This document shows positions 37,898 through 45,799 of a stretch of 64,000 nucleotides of DNA, in pieces; position 1 is the first letter of the stretch, and every line of letters begins with the position of its first letter. The position numbers were made by a program, and so were the translations under genes. This DNA is from Pyrinomonadaceae bacterium (GTDB lineage Bacteria; Acidobacteriota; Blastocatellia; Pyrinomonadales; Pyrinomonadaceae). The DNA is taken from contig DASUNM010000027.1 of NCBI GenBank assembly GCA_036277115.1, forward strand, positions 62,001 through 126,000, in the 5' to 3' direction. The notes under the pieces are model-generated. The model saw nothing but the letters and a program-made list of their open reading frames with translations. It searched no databases and was not told the origin of the DNA.

Positions 37898-38380
37898 TTA
37901 AGTCCAATAGGTGCGATCGAGCGAGCGGTAATGTACAGCTTCGGACACGTGAGCGGAACTGATGGCGGCTGAGTCATCGAGATCAGCGATGGTTCGGCTC
38001 ACCTTAAGGATGCGATCATAGGCGCGCGCCGACAAGCCGAGACGGGCCATTGCGCGTTCCAGCATCGTCTCGCTTTCCGAATCGATGCGGCAATATTTGC
38101 GAATTAGCCTTGGTGACATGGCTGCGTTCGAGAAGATTCCTTCTGCCGCCAGGCGCTCGCTCTGGTGCGCGCGGGCACGAATGACGCGGTGTCGAATTGC
38201 TTTTGAGTCTTCGGCATCCGGCGGCGTGTCGCCGGTAAGTTCACGAAACTTCACAGCGGGTACGTCAATGTGAATATCGATCCGATCAAGCAGCGGTCCG
38301 GATATGCGTCCGACATAACGCTGAATCTGCAACGGCGAGCAGTTACATTCGCGCGTCGGATCATTCCAAAAGCCGCACGG
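37898..38380 (-). pseudogene. comM: comM (Mg-chelatase-like helicase) C-terminal remnant, split by the prophage
   Basis: The minus-strand frame reads [20 protein letters not shown], then [20 protein letters not shown] and a normal C-terminus ending RSLDRTYWT, about 160 residues. This is the end of ComM/YifB (normally ~500 residues), the hexameric helicase that helps branch migration in natural transformation. In intact proteins the segment before PCG is usually MNPC; here it changes to unrelated residues (WVGKTQ) and a stop within 20 bases, exactly where phage genes begin. The N-terminal part should lie beyond the right edge of the prophage. Confidence 0.85.
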
Positions 38381-39265: not shown

Positions 39266-39877
39266 ATGAAGGTTGGAATTCAAGCACGACTGAAGAACGG
39301 CATCCTTTGGGAAGCGGCTAAAAAGCTGGGTTCGGCCACGGCTCTGGCGCGATACCTCGGCTTGAGTCCTTCCGAGGTAGTTGCTTGGATCAATTTTGAT
39401 CGATCGCCGCTAAGTTTGAAGTCCAGACGTTCAGAAGAGTTTTGGCAGGACGTTGAAAACAAACTATTCACGCTGACAGGCCACACGCTTGAAGAAATCT
39501 TCCCGCCCGAAATTCGCACTCCTGCGTTTTTAAAACGGCAGAAGAAAATCGACGCAATCGTTGAAATGCCCACGCACGTCTTAATCGAGGCGGGGGCGTG
39601 TCCGCAACTTCCGCCAATGCCCGATGAGGCCGTGTTTCAGCATGAGCGGAGCCAGCTAATCGATCGCGTTGTTTCATCGCTGAACAAGCCGCGCTACGAA
39701 AAACTGATCAAGATGCGCTTTGGCTTGCCGCCCTACAGAGAGCACACGCTTGCTGAAGTCGCGGACGAGTTGGGCGTTTCAACTGGGCGTGTAAGGCAGA
39801 TGGAAAGCAAGGCATTGATGCAACTGCGTCATCCGTCACGGAGCGCAGAACTAGAGAGACAGATAGGCAAGATCTGA
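39266..39877 (+). CDS. phage regulator joining an N-terminal HTH to sigma-70 region 4
   Basis: 203 residues. The first ~45 residues contain a YdaS/XRE-like helix-turn-helix (SATALARYLGLSPSEVVAWI). The last ~60 residues are a clear sigma region 4.2 of the primary-sigma type: LIKMRFGLPPYREHTLAEVA, DELGVSTGRVRQMESKALMQ. Regions 2 and 3 are missing, so it cannot act as an ordinary sigma factor. It may recruit or redirect host polymerase to late promoters, or act as an activator or anti-sigma-like factor. Good candidate for the late-gene switch. Confidence 0.78.
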   Translation: MKVGIQARLKNGILWEAAKKLGSATALARYLGLSPSEVVAWINFDRSPLSLKSRRSEEFWQDVENKLFTLTGHTLEEIFPPEIRTPAFLKRQKKIDAIVEMPTHVLIEAGACPQLPPMPDEAVFQHERSQLIDRVVSSLNKPRYEKLIKMRFGLPPYREHTLAEVADELGVSTGRVRQMESKALMQLRHPSRSAELERQIGKI

Positions 39878-41401: not shown

Positions 41402-41683
41402 ATGGCTGAAACAGTAACGATACCTGCCTACGTGTTTCGAGAAGGCGTTGAGCCGCCTTACTTTCAAGTGTGGGACAACGACGAATCATCGGACGTTATT
41501 CACTCGCGCTGCGCGCAGACTCCTTACGACAGAGAGTTTCCTGTTTACGCTGACGAGATTCAGGAGATGCGTTGCCTTGAAGATATTTATTGCGCGAGGT
41601 GTGAACGGCTGATTCTAGTTGCAGTAATTCCGGCGGTAAGCGATGCCGCTGCCCCTTCAGAGGAGAGACAAGCGCGAAAATAG
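41402..41683 (+). CDS. phage Cys-containing small protein
   Basis: 93 residues beginning MAETVTIPAYVFREGVEPPY, with late Cys pairs (MRCLEDIYCARCERLI). Located two bases after the upstream stop. It is probably a zinc-ribbon mini-protein; function unknown. Confidence 0.6.
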   Translation: MAETVTIPAYVFREGVEPPYFQVWDNDESSDVIHSRCAQTPYDREFPVYADEIQEMRCLEDIYCARCERLILVAVIPAVSDAAAPSEERQARK

Positions 41684-41727
41684 CTCAACCCAAGCCGCGT
41701 AAAGTGTTGTAAACTAAAGAGAAACAA

Positions 41728-42780
41728 GTGATTCAGTGCCAACTTAAATTAAAGCTCACGCCACGCCAAGAGCGGCAGTTGGATCACTGGCTGTGGCATC
41801 TGCCTGCTGTTTGGAATTGGGCTATCAAGAAGCTAGAGAACGATGCACGCGGCGGGATTTACCATTCGTCATACGGTCTGAGAAATATAGTTTCAGGACA
41901 CGGGGCGCGAATCGGCATTCCTGCGCATGTGTTAGCGGCTGTTGTAATGGGTGCGCACGAAGCGCGGAAGCGGCATCTCAAAGGACTCTCACGCAAGCCC
42001 CGTCTAAAAGGGCGACGCAATAAATTAAACAGCATTCCATTGTCAGACCCGATGAGGCTTTGGGATCGGCGTCGCGTGGGCCTGTTGGGTGTCGGGCGCG
42101 TTCGTTACCACAAGCAAGACATCCCTGAAGGCAAGATTAAATGTGGTCGGATCGTTAAGCGAGCGTCGGGCTGGTATCTCTGCTTATTCATTGACGCAGA
42201 GCCGCAAGCGATCCCCGCAACGGGGCATGCGCAGGTTGGCGTTGATTCGGGCTTCACTTCGCTTCTCACTCTTTCAAACGGTGAGAAGGTTACTCACCCG
42301 CGAGAGTTAGAGGCTGCCGCGTGGAGGCTCGCACAGGCGCAGCGTGGCGGCAATGGTCGATTGGCAGCGCGGACTCAAGAACGAATCGGAAATCAGCGGA
42401 AGGATCGCAACCACAAACTGTCTCGTCGGCTTGTTTCAGAAAATGAATTTATTGCATTTAGCGCGGATCGCCATCGAGCGATAGCGCGGAAGTTTGGTAA
42501 GTCTGTGACTTCATCGAGCCACGGTCAGCTTCGATCAATGCTCGCTTACAAGTGCCGTGCAGGCGGTAGCGAGTACGTCGAAGTGCCGAGTAGAAATTCC
42601 ACCAAGACCTGCTCAACGTGCGGTGCTCTTTCAGGGCCGACCGGATGGGCAGGCTTGAAGGTAAGACAATGGACGTGTGTTCACTGTGGAACCGAACACG
42701 ATAGGGACGTTAACGCCGCTATCAACACGCTCAATGTCGGGCTTGGAATGAGCCACGAGATGTCCGCGAGGGCAGCCTGA
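41728..42780 (+). CDS. tnpB: TnpB-family (IS200/IS605 OrfB) protein with altered RuvC-II site
   Basis: 350 residues from the GTG at 41728. It has the N-terminal TnpB helical region (LKLTPRQERQLDHWLWHLPA), RuvC-I with Asp173 (QVGVDSGFTSLLTLSNGEK), a basic bridge region ending KDRNHKLSRRLVSENEFIAF, the zinc ribbon CSTCG / CVHCG and RuvC-III with Asp327 (HDRDVNAAINTL). At RuvC-II the expected Glu (IVVEDL in active relatives) is Ser245 (IAFSAD). TnpB proteins are RNA-guided nucleases using an RNA made from the element's right end. There is no TnpA beside it. The guide RNA would be expected at 42750-42865. It may be a nuclease-dead RNA-guided binder or an enzyme with a rearranged site. Confidence 0.85.
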   Translation: MIQCQLKLKLTPRQERQLDHWLWHLPAVWNWAIKKLENDARGGIYHSSYGLRNIVSGHGARIGIPAHVLAAVVMGAHEARKRHLKGLSRKPRLKGRRNKLNSIPLSDPMRLWDRRRVGLLGVGRVRYHKQDIPEGKIKCGRIVKRASGWYLCLFIDAEPQAIPATGHAQVGVDSGFTSLLTLSNGEKVTHPRELEAAAWRLAQAQRGGNGRLAARTQERIGNQRKDRNHKLSRRLVSENEFIAFSADRHRAIARKFGKSVTSSSHGQLRSMLAYKCRAGGSEYVEVPSRNSTKTCSTCGALSGPTGWAGLKVRQWTCVHCGTEHDRDVNAAINTLNVGLGMSHEMSARAA

Positions 42781-42865
42781 AATCGTCAATTAGCAACACG
42801 GCGAAGTTCAAGAGAGACACAAGCAGTCACGTCCGACTACGTAAGAGAGGGGGAGAGACGAAAAG

Positions 42866-43048
42866 GTGAGCCTAGCGGAAGTTACAGCAAAGATTAAAGG
42901 CGTCGCATTGCATCTCGGTCGCGCAGACACGGGCGGCTACTGGTGTCGCACCCGAAGTTCGAACAAGACTCTTCACACTTGGACGCCAGAGAAGGCGACT
43001 TGCAAAAAGTGTCTCGCGGCGTATCGCAAACACAGCAGCGGAGCGTAA
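42866..43048 (+). CDS. phage Cys-containing small protein
   Basis: 60 residues from a GTG start behind GAGAGACGAAAAG. Contains WCRTRSSNKTLHTW and CKKCLAAYRKHSSG, a possible His/Cys zinc site. It lies where a TnpB element's right end would be, so part of the region may double as guide RNA. Confidence 0.55.
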   Translation: MSLAEVTAKIKGVALHLGRADTGGYWCRTRSSNKTLHTWTPEKATCKKCLAAYRKHSSGA

Positions 43049-45725: not shown

Positions 45726-45799
45726 GGGCCAATAGCTCAGACGGATAGAGCGCCAGTTTTCTAAACCGGATGTCGCAGGTTCGATTCCTGCTTGGCCCT
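45726..45799 (+). tRNA. phage-encoded tRNA-Arg (anticodon UCU)
   Basis: Acceptor arm GGGCCAA/TTGGCCC, D stem GCTC/GAGC, T arm GCAGG-TTCGATT-CCTGC, discriminator T. The anticodon loop is TTTCTAA, anticodon TCT, which reads AGA (Arg), a codon rare in this GC-rich host. The anticodon stem CCAGT/ACCGG has one A-C mismatch. No CCA is encoded. Confidence 0.9.

What the first reader, a model, noticed from the sequence alone, without database searches (positions are those of the whole stretch)
41728..42865. Prophage TnpB-family protein without the RuvC-II glutamate: possible RNA-guided DNA binder
The protein keeps RuvC-I Asp173, RuvC-III Asp327 and the zinc ribbon, but the RuvC-II strand reads IAFSAD instead of IVVEDL, so Ser245 replaces the catalytic Glu. 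It is a lone gene (no TnpA) inside an otherwise intact phage gene run. Known nuclease-dead TnpB-like repressors (TldR) are carried by prophages and steer host promoters by guide RNA. TnpBs with rearranged catalytic sites are also known. The 85 bases after the stop, or the overlap with the next small gene, would be the place for the guide RNA.
Basis: partly seen in the sequence, partly recalled or inferred. Interest (0 to 1): 0.8.

Follow-up and report, generated by a model that had tools for sequence, protein, structure and literature searches.

The report
Phage RNA-guided TnpB, altered catalytic site
A prophage carries a small RNA-guided DNA-targeting gene of the TnpB kind whose usual catalytic glutamate is missing; the whole family of this gene lacks it, carries a guide RNA confirmed by covariation, and has two new invariant acids that suggest a rebuilt cutting site rather than a dead one.

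Summary
In detail: window 41728-42780 (+) encodes a 350-aa TnpB with Asp173, Asp327 and the zinc ribbon, but Ser245 in place of the RuvC-II Glu. This is not a defect of one copy. All 35 Ser-type sequences aligned (relatives 42-73% identical) have Ser or Thr there, and they also lack the alternative Fanzor-type Glu. Two acids are invariant in this family and absent from 73 other TnpBs: Asp247, just after the RuvC-II strand, and Glu193, at the start of the first helix. With Asp173 and Asp327 they match the DEDD layout of RNase HI, so a rebuilt active site is more likely than a dead one (inferred; no distances measured).

The guide RNA is well supported. Hairpins across the gene's end covary in relatives and are complete here. 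The scaffold ends at 42811 and the guide starts at 42812.

Some relatives are full IS200/IS605 transposons with tnpA. Guides are flank-derived and unrelated between copies, and this guide has no target in the host genome. One relative's guide matches intact sites in two related phages. These facts favour a mobile or homing-type RNA-guided nuclease over a host-promoter repressor (TldR). In four or five lone copies the guide's first bases recur just upstream of tnpB.

The parts
41728..42780 (+). tnpB, Ser-type (350 aa): D173, E193, D247, D327 invariant in the family; S245 replaces the RuvC-II Glu; S288 at the position of the alternative (Fanzor-type) Glu
42738..42757 (+). guide-RNA hairpin A, inside the end of the coding region
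   Evidence: covariation in 24 relatives; all pairs standard here
42761..42774 (+). guide-RNA hairpin B (TGTCC gcga GGGCA), just before the stop codon
   Evidence: arms change together in relatives (arms picked by hand); predicted fold
42783..42804 (+). guide-RNA hairpin C, after the stop codon
42805..42811 (+). scaffold end / element right end (AGTTCAA); homology between elements stops here
42812..42827 (+). predicted guide, GAGAGACACAAGCAGT (16 nt)
   Evidence: position by homology to the right end; no other perfect match in own genome or IMG/VR
41663..41670 (+). copy of the first 8 guide bases (GAGAGACA), 65 nt upstream of the tnpB start: left remnant or duplication of the target site, or an operator
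41671..42819 (+). inferred extent of the insertion (left end to second copy of GAGAGACA); joining the flanks in silico gives a longer upstream ORF ending just before the ribosome-binding site of the gene at 42866
   Evidence: inference

Best explanation
This is the TnpB-guide RNA cassette of an IS200/IS605-type element living without its transposase in a prophage. The transcript of tnpB is probably trimmed to a guide RNA with three hairpins whose 3' 16 or so bases are the adjacent phage DNA. The protein-RNA complex recognises that sequence beside a short motif (TGAAC-like in relatives) at sites that lack the element, as in related phages. I think it cuts there, favouring spread or retention of the element, using a RuvC site in which the lost Glu at 245 is replaced by Asp247 and Glu193, an RNase HI-like D-E-D-D set with Asp173 and Asp327. 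Shown: family-wide loss of the Glu, the invariant acids, the guide-RNA structure, the tnpA link in relatives, and the flank-derived guides. Inferred: RNA binding, metal binding by Asp247/Glu193, cleavage, homing.
For: Ser/Thr245 in 35/35 aligned Ser-type sequences; D173, E193, D247, D327 in 35/35; E193 and D247 in 0 of 73 Ecan/Ealt TnpBs, and they are the only family-specific invariant acids in the protein. The three types form separate clades, with full support for the Ser-type split. In the AF2 model Asp247 follows strand 239-246 and Glu193 starts helix 192-207, the first helix after the opening strands, as in RNase HI topology; best fold matches are ISFba1 and ISDra2 TnpB. Guide RNA: 94% of pair cells standard against 77% in shuffles, 55 double-changed cells against 14.5 +/- 3.2, slid versions 6-18. 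Y1 tnpA next to tnpB in relatives. One phage contig holds two near-identical copies at two sites with different guides. L024's guide matches two related phages lacking the insertion, beside the same TGACT motif. Purifying selection, dN/dS about 0.1 (dS saturated).
Against: No coordinates were available, so distances between D173, E193, D247 and D327 were not measured, and profile comparison with RNase HI was uninformative. Cas12m2 shows that a conserved altered RuvC site can bind DNA without cutting (PMC10442227). The Ser-type family is one clade, so E193 and D247 may have arisen together once and are not independent tests. No target of this particular guide was found.
Confidence: 0.6

Rival explanations
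1. An RNA-guided DNA binder that does not cut: the altered site holds at most one metal ion, and the complex silences genes at its target, for example related phages' gene starts or its own leader, where the first 8-11 guide bases recur.
For: Loss of both known positions of the RuvC-II Glu. Cas12m2 (His-Asp-Asp site) silences without cutting (PMC10442227), and TldRs are prophage-borne with guides as short as 6 nt sufficing (PMC13418256). Guide-seed copies lie 19-65 nt upstream of tnpB in four lone copies (4 of 21 loci against 1 of 420 mismatched pairs). L024's target is a gene start in related phages.
Against: Two new acids are fixed and D173/D327 never drift. The same protein type sits in intact tnpA-bearing transposons. 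Guides are unrelated between relatives, so no conserved regulatory target. No host target.
Confidence: 0.25
2. A decaying remnant of an insertion sequence with no present function in this phage.
For: No tnpA, single copy in the genome, no target found, three unusual residues at family-conserved positions (L55V, W80R, C83H) and DSG instead of DPG.
Against: Full-length frame, dN/dS about 0.1 against its nearest relatives (saturated), all guide-RNA model pairs intact. Its three departures are within the range of other members (0-12).
Confidence: 0.12
3. A TldR that steers a host promoter by its guide RNA, as in flagellin-remodelling prophages.
For: Prophage location, no tnpA, missing Glu.
Against: Host genome matches to the guide are no more than in the reversed control (27 against 35 at up to 3 mismatches) and the only perfect one is its own flank. 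No flagellin-like or other typical partner gene was recognised beside it. Family members are transposons.
Confidence: 0.03

Closest known systems
TnpB of IS200/IS605 elements (ISDra2, ISFba1)
   Same: Fold, zinc ribbon, RuvC-I and RuvC-III Asp, guide RNA overlapping the gene's 3' end with the guide taken from the flank; relatives carry the Y1 tnpA
   Different: No RuvC-II Glu; an Asp two residues later and a Glu at the start of the first helix instead; lone gene in a prophage here
Ealt TnpBs / Fanzor-type active site (PMC10711439)
   Same: Canonical Glu position empty; DPG motif common in the family (DSG in this copy)
   Different: The alternative Glu seven residues before the first zinc Cys is also absent (Ser288); separate clade
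TldR, TnpB-like nuclease-dead repressors (PMC13418256)
   Same: Prophage-borne, altered RuvC site, short guide RNA after the gene
   Different: Acids kept and two gained, tnpA-bearing relatives, non-conserved guides, no host target found
Cas12m2 (PMC10442227)
   Same: Conserved non-canonical RuvC site in a TnpB-derived protein
   Different: His-Asp-Asp rather than the acid set seen here; CRISPR effector, not a transposon or phage gene
RNase HI
   Same: Order and position of acids in the fold: first strand, first helix, end of fourth strand, last helix (layout of E. coli RNase HI recalled, not fetched)
   Different: No detectable sequence similarity; geometry untested

Membership tests
IS200/IS605 TnpB | TnpB family profile and fold | tested here: met
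   NF040570 E 2e-52 above cut-off; Foldseek to ISFba1/ISDra2 TnpB
IS200/IS605 TnpB | RuvC D-E-D triad | tested here: not met
   Glu replaced by Ser245; D173 and D327 kept
IS200/IS605 TnpB | guide RNA at the gene's 3' end, guide from the flank | tested here: met
   covariation and boundary
IS200/IS605 TnpB | RNA-guided DNA cleavage | not testable with these tools
   needs biochemistry
TldR | RuvC active site inactivated | tested here: inconclusive
   Glu lost, but D173/D327 invariant and D247/E193 newly invariant
TldR | domesticated, not in a transposon | tested here: inconclusive
   lone here, but family members carry tnpA and move
TldR | guide complementary to a host promoter | tested here: not met
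   no host match above control; matches shorter than 16 nt were not ruled out
Ealt (Fanzor-type) TnpB | Glu seven residues before the first zinc Cys | tested here: not met
   Ser288; never acidic in 35 members
RNase HI-like DEDD site | acids in strand 1, helix A, end of strand 4, last helix | tested here: met
   positions against AF2 secondary structure and conservation
RNase HI-like DEDD site | acids within metal-binding distance of each other | not testable with these tools
   no model coordinates returned

The most novel reading that the evidence does not exclude
A third natural arrangement of the TnpB/Cas12 RuvC site, RNase HI-like D-E-D-D with Asp at Glu+2 and Glu in the first helix, in a clade of transposon- and phage-borne TnpBs whose lone phage copies insert with an 8-11 bp duplication of the guide's seed and act as RNA-guided homing elements against related phages.
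Probability: 0.4. Interest if true: 0.8.

Novelty: new variant of a known kind. Interest (0 to 1): 0.6.

Why it matters
TnpB is the ancestor of Cas12 and is being developed for editing. A clade that lost the essential RuvC Glu yet stays under selection in mobile elements would show how the site can be rebuilt, or give compact natural RNA-guided binders. Either answer could be had from one purified complex. The seed repeats upstream of lone phage copies also raise a testable question about how tnpB-only elements move.

Tried and rejected
RNase HI profile against Ser-type, Ecan and Ealt profiles with hhalign: no meaningful alignment. Rfam: no match. Guide targets: own genome at up to 3 mismatches, no excess; IMG/VR exact, none; phages and plasmids, none. 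Empty site of this prophage: flanking DNA has no relative in 97 related genomes, and the downstream gene has none in IMG/VR. An apparent empty site for L016 turned out to be a second copy of the element. Glu285 considered as the missing ligand and rejected: not invariant, and common in Ealt TnpBs. Glu218 and Asp226 rejected: common in other TnpBs. A TGARY-plus-seed scan of the host genome gave 19 hits at up to one mismatch against 13 in the reversed control, too few to interpret. The 2023 PNAS survey of TnpB catalytic-site rearrangements and the 2024 Nature TldR paper are not in the library, so I could not check whether this clade was listed there.

Full report
OBSERVATION. The ORF 41728-42780 (+) encodes 350 aa and is a TnpB by Pfam, PHROGs and NCBIfam. 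Asp173, Asp327 and the zinc ribbon are present, and Ser245 stands where the RuvC-II Glu should be. The gene is single in the 4.85-Mb genome, without tnpA, in a prophage with terminase, portal, scaffold and tail genes.

THE SERINE IS A FAMILY TRAIT. Relatives at 42-73% identity were found in viral contigs and in bacterial genomes. In an alignment of 35 Ser-type, 23 canonical-Glu (Ecan) and 50 alternative-Glu (Ealt) TnpBs, the three sets fall in separate clades, and the Ser-type split has full support. All 35 have Ser or Thr at 245. None has an acid at 288, where Fanzor-type proteins keep the displaced Glu (definition from PMC10711439). So neither known version of the catalytic Glu exists here.

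REBUILT RATHER THAN DEAD. Fifteen residues are near-invariant in the Ser-type family and essentially absent from the others; only two are acids, Glu193 and Asp247, each 35/35 against 0/73. In the AF2 model (mean pLDDT 85) Asp247 directly follows strand 239-246 and Glu193 begins helix 192-207, the first helix after the opening strands. With Asp173 in the first strand and Asp327 at the start of the last helix, this is the order of the RNase HI acids D10, E48, D70, D134 (recalled layout). Asp173 and Asp327 do not drift. I could not measure distances because the tool returns no coordinates, and sequence profiles cannot align RNase HI with TnpB. The caution is Cas12m2, whose conserved His-Asp-Asp site binds one Mg and does not cut (PMC10442227); conversely GtFz1 cuts with a non-canonical triad (PMC11423790).

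GUIDE RNA. Just past the stop codon many relatives share CCGGAATCCCC...GGGGAGGTTCAA, and homology between elements stops there, as at IS200/IS605 right ends. In 24 sequences, two hairpins (one in the coding end, one after the stop) show strong covariation: 94% of cells paired against 77% in shuffles, 55 double changes against 14.5 +/- 3.2, and slid registers give 6-18. A third hairpin at the stop changes both arms in step (arms picked by hand; single-sequence z-scores average -1.7). In this copy every model pair is standard (the model includes this sequence, so its E-value is not independent). The guide starts at 42812: GAGAGACACAAGCAGT. TnpB is known to process its own mRNA into the guide RNA (title of PMC10278001).

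MOBILITY. At least five relatives have a Y1 transposase gene directly upstream (Pfam E 1e-29 to 1e-45). One phage contig holds two copies about 99% identical over the shared part, at two sites with different guides, one without tnpA. Guides of relatives are unrelated to one another. These are transposon properties. Two other Ser-type phages, L002 and L008, share distant neighbour genes with this prophage, so the gene may also persist in a phage lineage.

TARGETS. In the own genome the guide matches only its own flank perfectly, and matches with up to 3 mismatches are no more than in the reversed control. For L024 the guide is found, 20 of 20, in two related phages without the insertion at that spot, preceded by the same ATGACT as L024's left flank. 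That is the expected target of a TnpB: the uninvaded site.

AN UNEXPECTED REPEAT. In this copy, L002, L024 and L056 the first 8, 9, 11 and 10 guide bases recur 65, 60, 47 and 19 nt upstream of the start codon; L003 has a 24-nt imperfect repeat overlapping its start codon. Exact repeats of 8 or more within 70 nt occur in 4 of 21 loci against 1 of 420 mismatched pairs. Joining the flanks at the repeat gives a longer upstream ORF in this prophage that ends just before the next gene's ribosome-binding site, and a coherent short ORF in L056. Classical IS200/IS605 insertion makes no target duplication (established knowledge). I read the repeat as the left remnant of the target; a guide-matched operator is possible.

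VERDICT. The TldR reading is not supported. A mobile RNA-guided TnpB with a rebuilt active site is the best explanation (0.6 overall; RNA guidance alone about 0.93, rebuilt and active rather than dead about 0.65). It is a new variant of a known kind. The published survey of TnpB catalytic-site rearrangements could not be read, so priority is uncertain.

Noticed in passing
window 37898-38332 and contig C27 100.4-160.9 kb: The prophage seems to split a comM-like (Mg chelatase family) gene: its C-terminal part is at 37898-38332 (-) and an N-terminal ChlI domain is about 60.6 kb away (C27:160977-161324, same strand), so the prophage would be about 60 kb and inserted in comM.
   Followed up: partly
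window 45726-45799: A tRNA-Arg (tct) gene inside the prophage.
   Followed up: no
window 39266-39877: Phage regulator with a sigma-70 region 4 domain (E 1e-14) at the C-terminus and a weaker YdaS/Cro-like HTH at the N-terminus.
   Followed up: no
window 41663-41670 and 42812-42819; L002, L003, L024, L056: Repeat of the guide's first 8-11 bases just upstream of lone phage tnpB genes; target duplication, homing scar or operator not distinguished.
   Followed up: partly
L183:2620-2639 (-), L185:122-141 (-), L024: Related phages reuse an identical gene start (ATGACTACAGATAACCAACCAGCACCGGA) before different genes; L024's guide targets exactly this shared gene-start module.
   Followed up: partly
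L020/L061 against L016/L019: A tnpA-less derivative of a Ser-type IS (tnpA internally deleted, left-end bases GAACAGAGTGTGAG kept) sits in the same phage contig as another copy of the element.
   Followed up: partly
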